A DNA stretch of 64,000 bases from Gloeophyllum trabeum ATCC 11539. Taxonomy: Eukaryota > Basidiomycota > Agaricomycetes > Gloeophyllales > Gloeophyllaceae. The position numbers were made by a program, and so were the translations under genes. The stretch is taken from the NCBI RefSeq assembly GCF_000344685.1, contig NW_006920414.1, positions 586,463 to 650,462 of the forward strand. The letters run 5' to 3'. Under the pieces are notes generated by a model that made no database searches, had not been told where the DNA came from, and was given only the letters and a program-made list of their open reading frames with translations. The first letter of the stretch is position 1, and every line of letters starts with the position of its first letter. Positions 4,592-20,779 of this stretch are shown here, piece after piece.

Positions 4592-5775
4592 ATGCAGCAA
4601 ATCCTCACTGCTTTATCTGTCCTGTTCTTGATTCAAGGGGCTTTGGCTGGCCATCCCCATGGAACCCACGCGAGGCGTCATCGGAGCCGCCAGATCACCC
4701 CCAAGGTCCACGCGAGAGCAGACCAGACGTACAAGCTTGTCGATCTTTACCAGGGACAATCGTTCTTTGAGTACGCGTCTCATTGGTGGCATGTATTGCT
4801 CTGAGCTGACCAACTCTTGTAGCGGCTGGGACTTCTTCACCGGTGGTGACCCAACTCACGGTCTCGTTGACTTCGTGTCACAGTCCGAGGCGCAATCCGC
4901 CGGTCTCGCCTACGTCCAGAGCGATAACACGACCGTTCTGGCTGTCGATGACAAGAGCACTGTTGCCGTTGGCGGTAATCGGAAGTCGTAAGTGTCGTGA
5001 TCCTCTCAATCGGATGATTACCGATGTTGATCTACTTCATACGTATCTAGTGTTCGGATCACGTCGAAGAAGACTTACTCGAACGGCCTTTTCATCGCTG
5101 ACTTCTACTCGATGCCCCATGGTTGCGGTGTGTGGCCCGCATGGTGGTCGACGGGGCCCAACTGGCCGAACGGTGGGGAGATCGACGTCGTCGAGGGTGT
5201 CAACCTGGGTCAGACGAACCAGATGACCCTGCACACCGCTGATGGGTGCTCCCTGGACACTGCTACCGCATTCACTGGGCACACCCTCGGCACGACATGC
5301 GCAAGCAGCCCCGCCGACAACTCCGGGTGCGCGATCGAAGACACGAACGACAACAGCTATGGCCACGGCTTCAACATGATCGCCGGCGGCGTTTTCGCCC
5401 ATCTGTGGGACGACAACGGGATCTCCATTTGGCACTTCCCCAGGGGCAGCATTCCCGCGGACATCACTGCGAAGACGCCGAACCCGAGCAGCTGGGGCCA
5501 TCCTGCGGCGTCGTTCGCGAGCTCTAGCTGCGACATCAAGTCCCACTTCTACGACCACTCGTTGGTGATTGATACGACCCTTTGCGGCGACTGGGCTGGT
5601 GCTGCGTACGCCTCTAGCGGATGCCCCGCGACGTGCGAGGAGGCTGTAGCTGACCCTACCAATTTCAAGAGTGGGTAGTATCGTTTCATGTCGGTACGAC
5701 TAGTATAACTGACGAAACATCTGTCCCTCCATAGACGCGAAGTGGAACGTCAACTACATCGCCGTTTACCAGTAA
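4592..5775 (+). CDS. Secreted GH16 endo-1,3(4)-beta-glucanase-like glycoside hydrolase
   Basis: Likely hydrolyses or remodels beta-1,3/1,4- or beta-1,3/1,6-glucan of the cell wall. Four exons fit: 4592-4770, 4823-4987, 5051-5670 and 5735-5775, giving 334 residues. The first 20 residues are a signal peptide ending near GALAG, followed by an Arg/His-rich propeptide-like segment. The GH16 pattern is clear: FFDGWDFFTGGDPTHG, then the catalytic signature GEIDVVEG with nucleophile and acid/base Glu, preceded by WPAWW and followed by the MTLHT strand. The C-terminus reads WNVNYIAVYQ. Paired Cys residues suggest disulfides. Basidiomycetes carry many GH16 paralogues, so exact glucan specificity is not readable here. 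Confidence 0.93.
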
Positions 5776-6316: not shown

Positions 6317-7977
6317 ATGATTCCCGAAGGTATAACCTTTCCGAACCCGACATGCACATCCGATTCCGCGAGCTATAACGCCTATACGAGACGCACGAGC
6401 AAGGTACGATCGCCTCCTTCCCCATAGGAGCCCTCTGCCCATTTTGATCCATTGTTTGTTGATTGACGTGGCTTCCTGTTCGCGATGTTGATCCTATACT
6501 CTAAAGGCTTGTGCCAATTGCAGGTTCGTACAAGTTTAGATGCTTCTCTTCCATATATGAAGATGTGGGCGCTGAATTGACTTTGAGTGAAGGAGGGACA
6601 AGATTAGGTGTGACGGTGGCAGGTACGTATTTGCAAGTAATGGGCCCTCCTACTACACACTAACATAATGGTCCAACAGACCATGCGGGAACTGCATAAA
6701 GAAGCGCTTCCATTGTACGGACGGATGCCAACATTGTCGTAAGGCGAGAGTTCGATGCGAAGATGGTAGGCCTTGCCGACGGTGCCGCGAGAAGGACCTT
6801 GAGTGCCAGGACGAGCCCGAGCCTCCTCCGAAGCCTGTGTTTCCAGTGCTGGATGCCACAGGCCCTCTTTCAGTCTATCCTGCGGGATTGTCTGCCCCGA
6901 AGATCGGTAGCTCGGCCCGTAATCATAGCGTCAAAGTCCCCGAGAGAGTGAAGTTAGCATGCCTAGCATGTCGGAAGGACAACAAGAAGGCATGTCGTTC
7001 ACTCCGGTGCGAGATGCAGAGGCTATACAGATCCCAATAGTGCGACGACGAGCGGCCCTGCTCGCGGTGCGTCGCGAGGGGCCAGGACTGCATTCATGTG
7101 GAAAAGGGGCCTAAGCAGGTGAAGTCCCGCTGCGAGGCGTGCCGGCGAGATAGCAGGAAGTGCGAAGACACCCGGCCGTGCAGGCATTGTGCCTACCAGG
7201 GAATTGAATGTGTCGACGCCCCTCGGAAAGGCCGGGGGCATGGCCTACGAACAAGAGCGGTGCGTACTCGTTCTACGCTATTCATGTCTATAATTCACAA
7301 GTTATCTCCAGGCATGTAATAGTTGCCGGTAAGAGCGTTTACAACCTATTCATCGGACTCGACTGAATTAGTCGAATAGGAGAGACAAAATCAGGTGCGA
7401 CGGTGGACGGTAAGCTCTTTCTTGCCTCAGCCTGGCGTTGACTTAAATACCCTCAAGGCCATGTTCAACATGCGTCCGCAAGGGCCTCCATTGCATCGAC
7501 CAACCATGTACCGAGTGCGTGCGAGAGGGCAAATCCGCCCGGGCCTGTACGCATGCCACTCCGCCAGAACCGGGTATACCATACGAGGCCCCGTCAACTT
7601 CCCTGCAAGCAGATCAATATCAAGATCCTTCCGCTAGCTATCAAAATATCGACCCATCCCTCCAGCTGCATCACAGTGTAGGCGTAGCGGGGGTGCAGCA
7701 CACTCCCGAGGTCCACGTTCCCCATTACCCTGTGCAGACGAGCTACCAGCAGCATATCCCGAATATACCCCCGTTCCCCATGCACCCGCAGTCTCATCCG
7801 GGTATGATGCAGCACGCTGAAGCGTATGCAAGTCTTCCTTCGACGTCGCATTCCATGATGGACTTTCCTATGCCACAGAATCAAGGCGGCCACTACTCGA
7901 ATTTCTCGGTAATGGAGTCAGACTATGCCGCGCAGGACTTCCAGGGACGCATGGTATCCGCGGAGAGGTTTGGTTGA
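6317..7977 (+). CDS. Putative regulator with five tandem Zn(II)2Cys6 clusters
   Basis: Probable nuclear DNA-binding protein of the Gal4-like zinc-cluster class, but with an unusual architecture. Eight exons join in frame: 6317-6403, 6507-6523, 6593-6622, 6680-6989, 7041-7259, 7312-7328, 7380-7409 and 7458-7977, giving 409 residues. Five complete C-x2-C-x6-C-x5/6-C-x2-C-x6-C clusters begin CANCRRDKIRC, CQHCRKARVRC, CLACRKDNKKC, CEACRRDSRKC and CNSCRRDKIRC, each continuing RPCxxC. A sixth half-cluster (PCTECV...C) follows. The remainder is Pro/Gln/His/Met-rich and probably disordered. Clusters 1 and 5 are each built from a 17-nt exon plus a 30-nt exon plus the start of the next. Intron 4 (6990-7040) starts with GC and must be removed to complete cluster 3. 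No fungal-specific TF middle homology domain is visible. Start chosen as the ATG giving an open 29-codon first exon in phase. Confidence 0.8.
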
Positions 7978-9645: not shown

Positions 9646-11579
9646 ATGGATAGCCAGACATCCTCTCCTGACAGGTAAATTGTGCGAGCCTGGGCTTATG
9701 GGCGTGCTGACTTGGTTGCGCGCTTTGCAGAGCAGCCGTTAAGGTCAAGTACTCGAGGAAACACAAGGTGAGTTTGTCTCATCTTCATCGCGGGGTTGGG
9801 AGGCTGAATCGTGAGCGCAGAGGGATAGTAGCACTGTCAGCGTGACACAGTGAGTTGAATAGTGCTGCAACGGGAGGGGGTATCGACATTGATTGCAGGG
9901 GAACATTGGACGGAGGTGAAGCGACGGAGAGCAAGAATGGGGCGGTGGAGACTCCCAGTCAACGAGTGAGTGCCATTGTTTGCTATGGAGATACCGCTGC
10001 GGTCCAGTGCTGTGAAGAGGGGAAAGGGGGGGATCCATGAGGGAGAGCAAAACTGCCCCGATATGCTCCAGTTCCCAAATAGAGATACTGAATTTATTCA
10101 ATTGTAGGGGCCGAAGAAAGTCGATGTGCAGTATGTCCTTGTATCCACTACCAGCTTGATGGTCATTTTCTTATTTCTACCGGCTCGCTAGTCTACCAGG
10201 GCCAGAACCCAGTCCAGCTAGCACCCCTGCCAAAGACAAACTCAAGAGAAAGCGGTCCTCCATCGCCAAACGCGACCCTGCGTATGCCCTCGTATCCCCC
10301 GCCCAATTCCCTTCCAATGACGCTCCTCGTAGATACAAACCCGGCGCAGAGTCTCCTGACGACGACGCCTCCTCGATCGCCGAGTCGTCCACCTCCCTCG
10401 CTCCGCGCATGCGGAGGACGGAGCCGGAGCGCAAGAAGATCTTCGAGGACGACCCGCACTGCGACCAGTTCGAGGAGCACCGCGCGCACTGCTCTAAATG
10501 CGACAAGTGGATCAGTCTGGGCAAGAAGCCCACCTATGCGGTTCGCCCTTGGCTGAATCATATTCAGAGATGCGTGCCTGGGTGCGTCTCGGATTTGTTG
10601 AACCGTCTGCTTCAGCCATGCTTACTATTGTGCTCAGCCGGGAGCAGGCGGCGGTGATGCAGGAGCAGGCAGCGCAGGAGCAGGTAGCGCAGGAGCAGGC
10701 AGCGCAAGAGCAGGCAGCGCAAGAGGAAGCGGAAGAAGAGCAAGAGGCTGAAGACGCAGCCTCCGTCGTAGCGCCTTCTGTAGCTGGGAAGTTGCGTACC
10801 ACGGAAGCAGAGCGGCGCGCTGTGCTCGAAGCGGACCCCATGGTCGCAGAGGCGCGACCGCACGAGGTGTTATGCAAGAACTGTCACAGATGGATCAAGC
10901 TGGCAACTGGCCGAGTGTACGTCCTCGGGAACTGGAATCGTCACAGGGAAAGCTGCGTCGGGAAATCTCAGTCAGCGTCGCTTTCGTCATCCCTGCTTGA
11001 ATGCTATTTGACATGTTAGTATTCCAGGCCCAGCGGTCGCGTCGCAATGGCCCAGCGCAAGTTGAACCTCGTTAACGACCCGCTGGCCCACTCGTTCACC
11101 GCTCGCAGCGTGGAATGTGCATCGTGCGGTGAGACCGTTACGACTGAGAAAGACTCCCCCGACTACGACTTGACCAAATGGCAAGAGCACAAGGGGTCCT
11201 GCGTGAAGTACGTTGCTCGGTAGTGTATTTCGTATCCCCCTGCTCACGTTACCATCCAAGGCGCCCGAGATCGCCTAGGTCCCCGCCTCAGACGAACGGG
11301 ACGTCCACTAAGACCCGAGCCGCGCCGGTATCCCCTCCCTCCGCCCCGGTACGTCCTGCATCCGATGAAACCCCGAAGGAGGTCAGCCCGGACAGAGGCC
11401 AGAAACGCCCGCGGGAAACCGAAGACGGTGATGCAGAGAGCAGGCCGCAAAATCGCCCGCGAACGGCAGACTACGAAGCTCCCCAGCAGGAGGCGCCGGG
11501 CCCTTGGGGCTGGTTCCTCCTGCCTTTCAAAACGTTCATCCGTGGGTTCCGCGAAGGGTTGAGCGGGGGCTCGTCGTAG
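9646..11579 (+). CDS. Protein with three CxxC-x19/20-H-x3-C zinc fingers
   Basis: Unrecognised family; a nucleic-acid-binding role is a guess from the fingers and Lys/Arg-rich ends. Seven exons join without a stop: 9646-9674, 9731-9767, 10108-10130, 10192-10581, 10638-10970, 11028-11207 and 11261-11579, giving 436 residues. Three repeats have the same layout: a lead-in like RRTEPERKKIFEDDP, then CxxC, a 19-20 residue spacer with a conserved Trp three residues before His, then H-x3-C (for example CSKC...WLNHIQRC, CKNC...WNRHRESC, CASC...WQEHKGSC). Between fingers 1 and 2 is a Gln/Glu/Ala pentapeptide repeat. The C-terminus is Pro/Arg-rich and ends in an aromatic amphipathic stretch (WGWFLLPFKTFIRGF). 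The next gene downstream carries a fourth finger of the same kind. Confidence 0.7.
10655..10735 (+). repeat. In-frame 15-bp minisatellite encoding QEQAA-like pentapeptides
   Basis: About five degenerate copies of a 15-base unit (roughly caggcagcgcaggag) run head to tail and are translated as repeats of QEQAA/QEQVA that grade into a Glu-rich segment. The unit keeps the frame, so copy-number change would vary the linker between fingers 1 and 2 without breaking the protein. Confidence 0.85.
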
Positions 11580-16775: not shown

Positions 16776-18021
16776 CGTACACAACAATCTGATCCTTCCT
16801 TTTCGGCGGCGTTGTTTGGCAGCAGCTTTGGATCCTGTAACAGTGTCACAGATCCCCGCCGATCGTTACACACAACCGTCGAGACGGTATGTATATGCTC
16901 GACGCTGACTGTCGCTGGACGCCCGACATAAGAGCAGCCAAAGGTGCCCCGCCGCCCTTGAACGCCATGGCCCTCCACCACTGCATCGACTACTGCGGCT
17001 CCAAGACCTCTGTCGTTGCTAGATGCGCTGCAGGAGGAGGGGCATGTGCTCCGTGGAGCTTGTTGAAGAGGCGACGACGATGCAGCTGCCGGTTGAGAGG
17101 GTCAGATCTGGTATGATCATCATTTTTCGCGTCTTTGGCTGGCACTCATCCATTCTTCGCATTAGGATTCTATGCATCTTAGACTATCAGGTTACCAACA
17201 GATTCGGATATGGACAGGCCTCCTGACAATCGTCTCGTGTGCGCGGCGTGGACAAAGGTCCCAACGACCGTTCGGTCTAGGACTAGTGTCTATACGCCCA
17301 TCCTTTGGAGCGTGTGAGGTAGGGAGCTTATACTCGTCCAGCCGTAGAGGATAAGATGTAATGGTCCTGTCAGCATCTTGAAAGCGGATATCGTGACGCC
17401 GAAGTACCCCTGCTTCGACTTCCACACCATCATCGTACATGTTTGCATCATGATTCCCAAGCATCGGTTACAGGTGTCCTCCGCACTTGATCCTAATCAG
17501 CGACTCCGAATATCGTTTTCTATCGACATGGAAGGCATTCAAGCTGTTCTACATACACTAGCACATTCATACATATACATATATTCCAAGAAACGAGTCC
17601 AAGAATCACTTGCAAGCGAAGGGTATCATATAGGGTCATCTTTGTCGTGAAAGTGCGCGGCGTCCTAGGATGAGTGTCCAGTACCGTGTAAACCGGGTGA
17701 TGAGTTGATTGGATGGGTCCCGCAGAAGCGCGAGCATTGTCTAGTCCAGCTCTTCGTCCGAAAGGGGGAGTACCGGAAGGGAAGCCGGACAAGCTTCTGA
17801 GAGAGTAATTGAGGAGTTGGTCGAGGAATGAAGTTGTCGCCAAAAGCGCACAAGTAGTTTCGGAAGCGTGGCTGCCGAAGGGGCATCCCCTGTACCAGAC
17901 AGGGGATCCTGCACGGCGCCGACGCTGAGGTTCGCGGAATCAGAGGAACACGAGTTCAAGGTCCACGTAAGATAGAGAAGGGGATCACATATCGTCCATG
18001 GTGATGTCTTGTTCTTTAAAG
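16600..18021. repeat. Arm B of the inverted segmental duplication
   Basis: Reverse complement of 1-2600, diverged and with internal loss. It includes the PEX7 3' end, the start and 3' flank of the GlcNAc kinase but not its body, and the block at about 17870-18021, which matches the first 150 bases of the window nearly base for base (for example tcgtccatggtgatgtcttg against caagacatcaccatggacga). Confidence 0.8.
16900..17190 (+). pseudogene. Deleted GlcNAc kinase copy
   Basis: An ATG at 16966 opens MALHHCIDYCGSKTSVVA, the counterpart of MALYLCVDCGGSKTSAV in the intact kinase at 2229. The likeness stops near 17045. From about 17158 the sequence again matches the intact gene's 3' flank (taggattctatgcatct against taggattatatttt...atgcatct). 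About 1 kb of coding sequence is therefore missing, and the phosphate-1 loop Gly-Gly has become Cys-Gly. It cannot encode a kinase. Confidence 0.8.
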
Positions 18022-18445
18022 TGCGCGGCGTCCTAAAATGAGTGGCCAGTACCGTTTAAACCGTGTGGTGATATGACTTCGAAAGGTCTCGTGGAAGCTT
18101 CAGTTGCGCGAGTATGTAGGCCGGGCAACTTCGGCGGCCTCAACGTATTCAGACTGCTCGAACTGCGGAAACGTGGCCGCCGAAGGGGCTTGCCCTGTGC
18201 CAGACAGGGAATCCTGCACGGCGCCGATGCTGAGGTTCAGGAGATGGGTCCGAGTTCCACTTGAGAGGGAGGTTTTCCATGTTCATATCTTGTTCGTTAA
18301 AAGTGCGCGGCGTCCTATAATGAATGTCCAGTACCGTATAAACCATGTGATGAGATGACTTCGAGGGTCCCAGGTCGCCAGCTTGCAGATCATACAAGTA
18401 CGGTGACCTCACGGGATGTCGTCCAACTCACACCGGTAGTTGCCA
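17650..18445. repeat. Degenerate tandem array with units of about 280-370 bp
   Basis: Three units start with nearly the same 50 bases, gtgcgcggcgtcct...gtccagtaccgt...aaacc, at about 17652, 18020 and 18302. The two complete units also share cctgcacggcgccgacgctgaggtt, which resembles coding DNA of the neighbouring minus-strand gene at 19255-19285 (reading SVGAVEDP). Each unit therefore seems to contain a decayed piece of that gene. An inverted copy of one unit is at 1-375. The array runs into the assembly gap. Confidence 0.75.
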
Positions 18446-19851
18446 NNNNNNNNNNNNNNNNNNNNNNNNNNNNNNNNNNNNNNNNNNNNNNNNNNNNNNN
18501 NNNNNNNNNNNNNNNNNNNNNNNNNNNNNNNNNNNNNNNNNNNNNNNNNNNNNNNNNNNNNNNNNNNNNNNNNNNNNNNNNNNNNNNNNNNNNNNNNNNN
18601 NNNNNNNNNNNNNNNNNNNNNNNNNNNNNNNNNNNNNNNNNNNNNNNNNNNNNNNNNNNNNNNNNNNNNNNNNNNNNNNNNNNNNNNNNNNNNNNNNNNN
18701 NNNNNNNNNNNNNNNNNNNNNNNNNNNNNNNNNNNNNNNNNNNNNNNNNNNNNNNNNNNNNNNNNNNNNNNNNNNNNNNNNNNNNNNNNNNNNNNNNNNN
18801 NNNNNNNNNNNNNNNNNNNNNNNNNNNNNNNNNNNNNNNNNNNNNNNNNNNNNNNNNNNNNNNNNNNNNNNNNNNNNNNNNNNNNNNNNNNNNNNNNNNN
18901 NNNNNNNNNNNNNNNNNNNNNNNNNNNNNNNNNNNNNNNNNNNNNNNNNNNNNNNNNNNNNNNNNNNNNNNNNNNNNNNNNNNNNNNNNNNNNNNNNAGG
19001 TCCGGAGGCTTGGGCTGCTTGTCGTGCTCCCAGACGCGGTTCCGATGGCGAACCACTTCAGGGTTGTCGGGCGAAGCGATCCTGGCCTCCTTCTTCCTTC
19101 GAGCCTCCCGTGCAGTCTCCCACACCATGTCGAAGACGAGGGCGCGCTGCAGGGCTTCCCGCTGGGCCTCGAGGCGAGCAATCCTCCGCGCCGCCCTTCG
19201 CTTCCTGCGGGACTCGCGAAGCACAGCGAAGATGGGGTCAATGTAGTCGGGGTCCTCCACGGCGCCGACGCTGACGAATTCAAGGGAGGGCACCGGTGGG
19301 AGCTGTTCGAAGTTGGCATCCTCGTCGATGCCGCTGATGAAGTCGAGGTGATGTTCTTCATAGTTCTGTAAATCATGGACATTAGGATAGGTGACATCAG
19401 CTATGCAGCCTGGACATACGTCGTCATCACTAGCCCAGGAGGAAGAGCGGGCGTCCCCAGGGTTGTCGATGGTGTCGTAGATGGTGTCGTAATAGAATTG
19501 AATACCAGGGGAGAGTTCAGAGTGAGGCGTCCTAGAGCGAGAGAACCGATAGACGATAGTAAAACCAAAGACGAGCAGAATGATGCTCCCCAGTATGCAG
19601 GCGGGAACAAAGGCCTTGACCGGGGAGTATCCGTCACTGTTCGAGTACACTGATGCGCGTGGGCCGTCCAATAGGAAGACCGTAGGAGGCGCATCGAGCG
19701 AAGGAGCAAGTGCATAGCCGAACAGGAAGCAGTAGAGCCGTCGAAGAGCAGGAGAGATACTGCGAAGTACGCGAGACAGCAGGTCAACACCCGAGAGGAG
19801 GTGGACCGCGTCGAAGAGGCTGCCAGTGTGAGTGCTGGAGAGCGAAGACAT
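18409..19851 (-). CDS. Single-pass membrane protein of unknown function, interrupted by the gap
   Basis: Unrecognised. The ATG at 19851 opens a frame that stays open to the gap. Visible features: an N-terminal segment SGVDLLSRVLRSISPALRRL, one strong transmembrane helix (ACILGSIILLVFGFTIVY) about 90 residues in, a Ser/acidic region, and a coiled-coil-like Arg/Glu-rich stretch (RESRRKRRAARRIARLEAQR) just before the gap. The part after the gap (18409-18445) is too short to prove it belongs to the same frame. A fragment of the same gene family lies at 42342-42540 on the same strand, and pieces lie in the tandem array. Confidence 0.5.
   Translation of the reverse strand: MSSLSSTHTGSLFDAVHLLSGVDLLSRVLRSISPALRRLYCFLFGYALAPSLDAPPTVFLLDGPRASVYSNSDGYSPVKAFVPACILGSIILLVFGFTIVYRFSRSRTPHSELSPGIQFYYDTIYDTIDNPGDARSSSWASDDDVCPGCIADVTYPNVHDLQNYEEHHLDFISGIDEDANFEQLPPVPSLEFVSVGAVEDPDYIDPIFAVLRESRRKRRAARRIARLEAQREALQRALVFDMVWETAREARRKKEARIASPDNPEVVRHRNRVWEHDKQPKPPDXXXXXXXXXXXXXXXXXXXXXXXXXXXXXXXXXXXXXXXXXXXXXXXXXXXXXXXXXXXXXXXXXXXXXXXXXXXXXXXXXXXXXXXXXXXXXXXXXXXXXXXXXXXXXXXXXXXXXXXXXXXXXXXXXXXXXXXXXXXXXXXXXXXXXXXXXXXXXXXXXXXXXXXXXXXXXXXXXXXXXXXXXGNYRCELDDIP
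18446..18997. other. Assembly gap (552 N)
   Basis: A run of N directly after the tandem array. The true length and content are unknown; the adjacent repeats probably caused the assembly break. Confidence 1.
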
Positions 19852-20779
19852 GGTGGTTCGATGATGAGAGAGATAGAGGGACTCGCTCGCCTTTTATGTT
19901 GGTTTCCGGGCGGCTGGCCGGGGTATTCGTGTAGCGTGCCAGCCGCTCGAAGCTACCAGTGACGTCGAGCTGTCTGGAGGCTGGCAGCCTCGGCGTCCAG
20001 CAGTCGAGATTGAAATGAAGGAACGAATCGCTTCATCTGAATCCCCCCGGGAACAAACCCTCATATACAGCATCGCGCTTCAGTGGGAAGAGGCATCACA
20101 TTAGTAGACAGTTAATACTTCGCTGCAGTCGTCCGGCCTGAGTGATGGCCGCAAGGATGCAAGAGCTCAGTAGGCATCCTGGCTGAGGCTTGGAGCTCGC
20201 GTTGTTTGGCTTTGTTTGGCCTGTGCCGGACGCCACAGACGCGTCGGTTATTAAGCATCAGGAAAAGCAAATTCTCCCGCAGCAGAGACGGTTCTATAGT
20301 GCACTACTTTGTAACCGCCGGTCCCTCCTTACGCTCGAAGGTACTGTAGGATAGGTACGCACGACTGATGCTATGATAGGCAGGTGGGAAATGTTTCTCT
20401 CCAAGGAAAACATCAGCGCTTCATTGACAACTGTCAATGATCATAAGCTCTTTCTCGCAGTGCTAAATGCTGTCAGTAAATCCAGTCGCTGTGAACTACT
20501 GAAGCAGTTGAATTTCACGGGAATGCGCACGGGATAGCCGGGTTGGATTAAGAGCGTCAACCAAAGAACTTGAACGCGAGCTATCGCCGTCAAGTTGGCC
20601 ATGGGTAACTTAACATTTGCGATTACGTGGCGGCTTGCACCCGATATTTTACGGTGGCCAGTGACCACGGAAGACTCGTTGAGGGCCACGACAGCGCTGT
20701 AAACAGATAACATCAACAGTGCGACTAGCGGCACGGGCAAAGCGACACGAAGGAGAACAGATATAGCCGTACTACGAGC
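19852..20779. other. Intergenic, includes a block shared with 43.7 kb
   Basis: No gene recognised. Positions 20199-20246 (gttgtttggctttgtttggc...gacgccacagacgcgtc) are almost identical to 43709-43758, which lies upstream of the first BTB gene. This is one anchor of the direct segmental duplication. Confidence 0.6.

What the first reader, a model, noticed from the sequence alone, without database searches (positions are those of the whole stretch)
6317..7977. Five complete Zn2Cys6 clusters in one 409-residue protein
Gal4-type regulators normally have a single N-terminal zinc cluster. This gene model, which joins eight exons without a stop, gives five full clusters plus a half-cluster, and no middle homology domain. 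It could bind extended or multipartite DNA sites, or use clusters for RNA or protein contacts.
Basis: partly seen in the sequence, partly recalled or inferred. Interest (0 to 1): 0.78.

Follow-up and report, generated by a model that had tools for sequence, protein, structure and literature searches.

The report
Conserved five-zinc-cluster mushroom gene regulator
A fungal gene encodes a likely DNA-binding regulator that carries five zinc clusters and a sixth, single-zinc-like site in one chain instead of the usual one cluster, and close counterparts occur across many mushroom-forming fungi, which points to an unusual way of reading DNA that still has to be tested.

Summary
Eight exons (6317-7977) give a 409-residue protein with five complete Zn2Cys6 clusters; Pfam finds five PF00172 stretches and each cluster alone exceeds the curated cut-off. 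It is not an artefact by homology: a Neolentinus protein matches residues 1-408 at 60%, and three searches returned 105 proteins, 101 taken as relatives. In 42 aligned members chosen for having five clusters, all 30 cysteines are invariant, and 203 of 210 clusters are closest to the same slot of another protein, so the five slots are old and distinct. The "half-cluster" is usually a four-ligand CCCH, or in some lineages CCCC, site that may bind one zinc. Clusters 3 and 4 resemble fission-yeast Pho7: most members have Asn at the Gal4 Lys18 position (the window has Ser in cluster 4) and basic residues at Gal4/Pho7 phosphate-contact spacing. No middle homology domain was found. Best reading: a single-chain, multi-cluster DNA-binding transcription factor with a disordered C-terminal tail. 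DNA binding, target and role are inferred. New variant of a known kind.

The parts
6317..7977 (+). whole coding region, eight exons, 409 aa (stop included)
   Evidence: join; one search match to P0001 over residues 1-408
6510..6716 (+). cluster 1 (residues 31-57), interrupted by introns 2 and 3; Gal4-Lys18 position = Lys
6726..6806 (+). cluster 2 (residues 61-87), three residues after cluster 1; position 18 = Arg
6960..7091 (+). cluster 3 (residues 139-165), Pho7-like, interrupted by GC-AG intron 4; position 18 = Asn
6990..7040 (+). intron 4, GC-AG, 51 nt, phase 0, in-frame stop if retained; relatives P0070, P0071, P0072 show apparent read-through right after DNKK, the same place
7092..7130 (+). 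13-residue linker 3-4 with basic residues K173 and R178 at C6+8 and C6+13 of cluster 3
7131..7211 (+). cluster 4 (residues 179-205), Pho7-like in most relatives; position 18 = Ser here, Asn in 37 of 42
7212..7314 (+). 17-residue linker 4-5 (PRKGRGHGLRTRA type), R213 and R218 at C6+8 and C6+13 of cluster 4; contains intron 5 (7260-7311)
7315..7494 (+). cluster 5 (residues 223-249), interrupted by introns 6 and 7; position 18 = Lys
7555..7974 (+). C-terminal tail, 140 residues, rich in P, S, Q, A, H, poor in K/R; low predicted confidence in the model of the relative P0001; ends in a recurring SAERF-type motif
6404..6679 (+). introns 1-3 (phases 0, 2, 2) with micro-exons of 17 and 30 nt, at cluster 1
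7260..7457 (+). introns 5-7 (phases 0, 2, 2) with micro-exons of 17 and 30 nt, at cluster 5, the same pattern as at cluster 1

Best explanation
This is a sequence-specific DNA-binding regulator of a conserved Agaricomycete family. Five zinc clusters and a terminal one-zinc module form an array in one chain, in the order pair 1-2, pair 3-4, pair 5-6', followed by an unstructured tail that probably recruits the transcription machinery. Shown: the gene model by homology, the five clusters, their conservation, their separate slot identities, and the conserved contact positions. Inferred: clusters 3 and 4 dock on DNA as Pho7 does, with the basic linker residues on the phosphate backbone; clusters 1, 2 and 5, which keep Lys or Arg at the Gal4 base-contact position, add further CGG-like subsites or stabilise the complex; the protein works without the coiled-coil dimer of Gal4, because the array itself supplies several DNA contacts. 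That the tail is an activation region is a guess from composition.
For: Five PF00172 stretches. All 30 Cys invariant in 42 of 42 aligned members (window plus 41), which were chosen because they show five clusters. Position equivalent to Gal4 Lys18: Lys 42/42 in cluster 1, Arg 41/42 in cluster 2, Asn 41/42 in cluster 3, Asn 37/42 in cluster 4, Lys 42/42 in cluster 5. Pho7 has Asn299 there, and Gal4 Arg46 and Arg51, which touch DNA phosphates, are Arg326 and Arg331 in Pho7 (passages of PMC5559640). That spacing is C6+8 and C6+13 by my count on the Pho7 sequence. Counted along each protein, both residues are basic in 38 of 42 after cluster 3 and 35 of 42 after cluster 4, against 0 of 42 after cluster 2 and 1 of 42 after cluster 5; by alignment column, R178 and R218 are Arg in 42 of 42. 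The best solved relative by profile is the Pho7 DNA-binding domain, E = 2.4e-11 on cluster 3; it also leads the Foldseek list, though only at E = 0.009. The core has 55 K+R to 30 D+E, the tail 2 to 12. The model of P0001 has no helix longer than six residues, so no coiled coil is predicted.
Against: No binding data, no expression data, no known target. After cluster 1 the two spaced residues are also basic in 40 of 42, but there they belong to cluster 2 itself, so the spacing is not unique proof. The window's own cluster 4 has Ser, not Asn, at position 18. The model's pTM is 0.32, so how the clusters sit relative to one another is unknown, and the block of linker 4-5 has pLDDT 53. No Foldseek match reaches E 0.001 and Z to single clusters reaches only 4.9, a level the tool calls middling. 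Three residues between clusters 1 and 2 may be too few for both to enter the major groove.
Confidence: 0.66

Rival explanations
1. Only the central Pho7-like pair (clusters 3 and 4) reads DNA; clusters 1, 2, 5 and the sixth module are structural or protein-binding, for example replacing the dimerisation helix.
For: Only clusters 3 and 4 are followed by their own basic linker with the Gal4/Pho7 phosphate-contact spacing; the linker after cluster 2 is variable; the best solved relative matches cluster 3.
Against: Clusters 1 and 5 keep the Gal4 base-contact Lys and the Arg after the second Cys (R35, R227) in 42 of 42, which purely structural clusters would not obviously need.
Confidence: 0.2
2. 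The array is not mainly a DNA reader but a zinc-loaded scaffold, RNA binder or zinc sensor (eleven zinc ions if all sites fill).
For: Unusual density of zinc sites; CCCH sites of other proteins are also used for RNA or protein contact (recalled); no target known.
Against: Slot-specific conservation falls on positions that touch DNA in Gal4, and the solved relatives listed are DNA-binding domains, the CBF3 centromere protein and the RSC3 remodeler subunit.
Confidence: 0.1
3. Gene-model artefact: two or more neighbouring genes, or spurious exons, joined by the reader.
For: Micro-exons of 17 and 30 nt and one GC-AG intron make the model demanding; no transcript data; 35 of 77 hits of the first search do not show five clusters by pattern.
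Against: 60% match to P0001 over residues 1-408 without a gap at any junction; 41 relatives align with all five clusters in the same order; places of introns 4 and 5 are visible as apparent read-through in relatives.
Confidence: 0.02
4. It is the gluconeogenesis activator ERT1, as automatic UniRef names of many relatives suggest.
For: UniRef names cut off as 'Transcription activator of glu...' or longer on P0002, P0003, P0004 and others; the full name is completed from recall.
Against: Pfam finds no domain but PF00172 in 42 members apart from one marginal Extensin_1; ERT1 proteins have one cluster and a PAS-type domain (recalled, not from a call). The name may be carry-over from cluster similarity.
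Confidence: 0.02

Closest known systems
Schizosaccharomyces pombe Pho7 DNA-binding domain (PDB 6e33, 6o19)
   Same: Cluster 3 of the family profile shares the DNKKCDD-x-RPC-x-RC stretch with Pho7; Asn at the Gal4 Lys18 position; basic residues at C6+8 and C6+13 after clusters 3 and 4. Pho7 is 43% identical on average to slot 3 at non-Cys positions, 13-32% to the other slots.
   Different: The solved Pho7 domain holds one cluster; here there are five plus a CCCH module. Full-length Pho7 was not compared.
Gal4 / Put3 / Hap1 / Leu3 / Ppr1 class of Zn2Cys6 activators
   Same: The cluster itself (PF00172; solved relatives) and Lys or Arg at the base-contact position in clusters 1, 2 and 5.
   Different: One N-terminal cluster with a coiled-coil dimer and often a middle homology domain in that class (general knowledge, and for Gal4); here five clusters, no predicted coiled coil, no such domain.
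Two-cluster Zn2Cys6 protein of Alternaria (mentioned in PMC10305253, passage seen)
   Same: More than one Zn2Cys6 domain in a protein.
   Different: Two domains plus a transmembrane segment, as described there; sequence not compared.
Polydactyl C2H2 zinc-finger regulators (recalled)
   Same: By analogy: an array of small zinc modules in one chain reading an extended site.
   Different: Unrelated fold; each Zn2Cys6 cluster uses two zinc ions and six Cys.

Membership tests
Zn2Cys6 binuclear cluster domain (PF00172) | C-x2-C-x6-C-x5-C-x2-C-x6-C, score over the Pfam cut-off | tested here: met
   Five of five clusters exceed 21 bits; the sixth module does not match
Gal4-class activator | single N-terminal cluster | tested here: not met
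   Five clusters, same in 41 aligned relatives
Gal4-class activator | coiled-coil dimerisation helix after the linker | tested here: inconclusive
   AlphaFold2 model of relative P0001 shows no helix longer than six residues, a prediction only
Gal4-class activator | middle homology domain (common, not universal) | tested here: not met
   None in 42 members by Pfam at E <= 0.01
Pho7-like DNA-binding domain | Asn in place of Gal4 Lys18 | tested here: met
   Cluster 3: Asn in the window and in 41 of 42. Cluster 4: not met in the window (Ser), Asn in 37 of 42
Pho7-like DNA-binding domain | basic residues at Gal4 Arg46/Arg51 = Pho7 Arg326/Arg331 spacing | tested here: met
   38 of 42 after cluster 3, 35 of 42 after cluster 4; the window has both in each
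Pho7-like DNA-binding domain | binds 5'-TCG(G/C)AxxTTxAA-type sites | not testable with these tools
   Site quoted from passages of PMC5559640; no binding assay possible
ERT1 (automatic name of relatives) | one cluster plus PAS-type domain (recalled) | tested here: not met
   Five clusters; no domain but PF00172 in 42 members save one marginal Extensin_1

The most novel reading that the evidence does not exclude
A 'polydactyl' Zn2Cys6 factor: one monomer uses five unlike zinc clusters, with family slot code Lys-Arg-Asn-Asn-Lys at the base-contact position, plus a CCCH cap, to read one long asymmetric DNA site. That would be another solution, beside coiled-coil dimers and single-cluster monomers, to how Zn2Cys6 proteins reach specificity, and it is old within Agaricomycetes.
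Probability: 0.35. Interest if true: 0.78.

Novelty: new variant of a known kind. Interest (0 to 1): 0.6.

Why it matters
Zn2Cys6 proteins are the most abundant class of fungal transcription factors (abstract of PMC10141177) and are usually described as one cluster acting in dimers. A family that keeps five different clusters in fixed order across several Agaricomycete orders, with no second copy seen in this genome (whose counts are lower bounds), is a natural test of how cluster identity, position 18 and linker set DNA specificity. It also exposes a practical problem: the micro-exons seem to make gene predictors drop clusters, and automatic names call several members ERT1-like.

Tried and rejected
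Gene-model artefact: rejected. ERT1 identity: rejected. Half-cluster as a true half of a binuclear cluster: less likely than a four-ligand site; a profile comparison of the sixth module with cluster 2 was too weak to show descent (probability 11%).

Duplication of cluster 1 into cluster 5: supported by identical micro-exon lengths (17 and 30 nt) and intron phases (0, 2, 2) and by the highest slot-to-slot identity, 53% of 21 non-Cys positions. Control: read by eye, one other zinc-cluster gene of this genome (L003) appears to have an intron at the intron-2 position and phase, while L007 and L008 have it at other positions; so intron 2 alone proves nothing, only the triple match counts, and the order of events is not settled.

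The Pho7 crystal paper (PMC6265462) is not held; nothing of its contents is used. Literature: eight searches on multi-cluster or Agaricomycete Zn2Cys6 wording and two on Pho7; I saw listings, and no title or passage seen describes this family. The library holds only open-licence papers. Passages seen: PMC5415576, PMC10141177, PMC5559640, PMC11253589, PMC3998117, PMC12421882, PMC6498484, PMC10305253; none was read whole.

Structure: apart from two rows of probability 0.02 or less, the Foldseek rows are Zn2Cys6 DNA-binding domains or CBF3; VIA-align likewise, and parts outside residues 158-202 of the model were barely tested. I did not try to fetch related DNA from other fungi: the held genome collections are prokaryotic and metagenome scans were capped at none, so there is no dN/dS and no intron comparison at DNA level. 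No named Polyporales, Coprinopsis or Schizophyllum protein is among the hits (orders by recall); this is not read as true absence, because those searches rely on shared words and length limits.

Rows dropped: A1 holds the window plus 41 of the 42 five-cluster hits (P0031 left out, its fifth match spans an apparently unspliced stretch). The sixth-module count starts from 102 sequences (window plus 101 of 105 proteins; P0099-P0102 dropped as non-members), loses 15 without a recognised linker and 15 truncated ones, and so examines 72. The shuffle test of the tail motif ignores that the sequences are related.

Full report
WHAT IS THERE. The window lies in a 35.5 Mb, 34-contig genome at C5:586463-650462. 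Exons 2 and 6 are 17 nt and exons 3 and 7 are 30 nt. The five clusters lie at residues 31-57, 61-87, 139-165, 179-205 and 223-249. Pfam gives PF00172 with five stretches (E = 3e-34) and no other family at E <= 1 for the whole protein; each cluster alone passes the curated cut-off.

IS THE MODEL REAL. No transcripts were available. By homology the model is strong. P0001 of Neolentinus lepideus (Gloeophyllales) aligns from residue 1 to 408 with 247 of 411 columns identical and no gap at a junction. Heliocybe P0002 covers 100% at 53%. These two best hits suggest that the window is from a Gloeophyllales species, which was not tested further. Of 77 proteins found by the first search, 42 show five clusters by pattern, 20 four, 9 three, 4 two and 2 one. 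I read all 35 with fewer than five, plus P0031 and P0085. By eye most begin late, are partial records, or are cut or mis-joined where the window has introns: apparent read-through after DNKK (intron 4: P0070, P0071, P0072) or after VKA (intron 5: P0052, P0061, P0062, and P0081). Against this, P0024 has Arg in place of a cluster 1 Cys and P0077 (Sphaerobolus) is divergent, so real loss occurs too. In the own genome the whole protein hits its own exons and, weakly, four places with at most a single cluster each; no second copy was seen, though the tool's counts are lower bounds.

A CONSERVED FAMILY. The profile search returned 102 proteins at E <= 1e-5 and a search from a longer member 19, 105 different proteins. 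Named hits are Agaricomycetes (genus names judged by recall except as below), apart from the marginal chytrid hit P0100 (E = 2e-6); many others are unnamed metagenome proteins. Orders looked up: Gloeophyllales, Sistotremastrales, Geastrales, Hymenochaetales, Russulales, Jaapiales and Amylocorticiales; Agaricales and Boletales are by recall. The hits from Geastrales (divergent), Jaapiales and Amylocorticiales do not show five complete clusters (P0077 and P0028, P0079). In alignment A1 (window plus 41 relatives chosen for having five clusters) all 30 Cys are invariant; the gaps between clusters are mostly 3, about 30 (19-87), 13 and 17 residues in the pattern count, where values of -1 come from a greedy pattern. 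When each of the 210 clusters is compared with all clusters of the other proteins at its 21 non-Cys positions, 203 find their best match in the same slot; the seven exceptions are five swaps between slots 1 and 5, one 2-to-1 and one 4-to-3. The five slots therefore separated before these lineages did and are each held to their own sequence.

SLOT CODE. The residue at the place of Gal4 Lys18, which contacts guanines, is Lys in 42 of 42 for cluster 1, Arg in 41 for cluster 2, Asn in 41 for cluster 3, Asn in 37 for cluster 4 (Ser in the window and two others) and Lys in 42 for cluster 5. In ten other zinc-cluster loci of the own genome that I read by eye, the residue is Lys in eight, Arg in one and Cys in one, never Asn; alone lists 24 matches, so this is a part. 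Pho7 of fission yeast has Asn299 there, and Gal4 Arg46/Arg51 correspond to Pho7 Arg326/Arg331 (passages of PMC5559640). Pho7 is also the best solved relative by profile, matched at cluster 3 (E = 2.4e-11), and the first Foldseek match of the P0001 model, at E = 0.009. Basic residues at both phosphate-contact spacings follow cluster 3 in 38 of 42 and cluster 4 in 35 of 42, but not cluster 2 (0) or 5 (1); after cluster 1 they are basic in 40 of 42, but there they belong to cluster 2.

THE SIXTH MODULE. Of 72 sequences that run past cluster 5 with a recognised linker, 51 have C-x2-C...C-x-H, 9 have C-x1-2-C...C-x2-C, and 12 fit neither pattern; of these 12, two (P0034, P0105) still have four possible ligands by eye, and ten lack the set. 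Five of the ten are Russulales by genus name (Auriscalpium, Dentipellis, Stereum, Amylostereum, Russula; Stereum looked up); the others are P0029, P0068, P0080, P0083 and P0090. Exchange of His for Cys as fourth ligand is what a single-zinc site allows, so I read it as a one-zinc module rather than a broken cluster, lost in some lineages. Zinc binding was not tested.

STRUCTURE AND TAIL. The AlphaFold2 model of P0001 has ten-residue block means of pLDDT mostly 79-96 over the clusters, 76 at the end of the sixth module, 53 in linker 4-5, low values in linker 2-3 and the tail, and pTM 0.32: the clusters fold, their mutual placement is unknown. The window's tail is rich in P, S, Q, A and H with 2 K+R and 12 D+E in 140 residues. 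A C-terminal S-[SA]-[EVD]-R-[FYM] motif occurs in 19 of 103 tails against 0.07 expected from shuffling (maximum 2 in 500), among named ones mainly Gloeophyllales and Boletales; the sequences are related, so the test overstates it, but a small docking motif is possible.

ORIGIN. Cluster 1 and cluster 5 share three intron phases (0, 2, 2) and both micro-exon lengths and are the most alike of all slot pairs, 53% of non-Cys positions. The block 1-2 also aligns along block 3-4, as any two tandem pairs might. Duplication of an intron-bearing segment is likely; the exact history is open.

HOW IT WORKS. Most likely a transcription factor in which the array, not a dimer, gives the DNA contacts, with the Pho7-like pair 3-4 at its centre. 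What is shown is anatomy and conservation; DNA binding, site length, zinc content of module six and the role of the tail are inferred. No description of the family was seen in ten searches of an open-licence library; a two-cluster Zn2Cys6 protein is mentioned in print (PMC10305253 passage).

Noticed in passing
window 10409-11019, + strand: Downstream ORFs hold two copies of a C-x2-C...W...H...C motif (CSKCDKWISL / CKNCHRWIKL) separated by a repetitive AQEQ-type stretch; of these only the ORF 10498-11019 was scanned, with one Pfam zinc-finger match below its cut-off.
   Followed up: partly
window 5112-5678, + strand: Upstream neighbour reads like a secreted glucanase-type protein (by eye and recall); the longest single ORF matches no Pfam family at E <= 0.01, perhaps because it is one exon.
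   Followed up: partly
window 18446-18997: A run of 552 N in a stretch of low G+C (41.5% at 18001-20000), an assembly gap or withheld stretch.
   Followed up: no
G000:C3:2625456-2625599 (L014): A single-cluster place of the same genome with CTNCQKACKKCDDARPC, by eye close to the Pho7-type stretch KKCDDARPC; it has Cys at the Gal4 Lys18 position.
   Followed up: no
P0099 (Gloeopeniophorella): A predicted 798-residue protein joins PF00735 (septin, name recalled) to PF00172, with two clusters by eye; probably a fused gene model.
   Followed up: no
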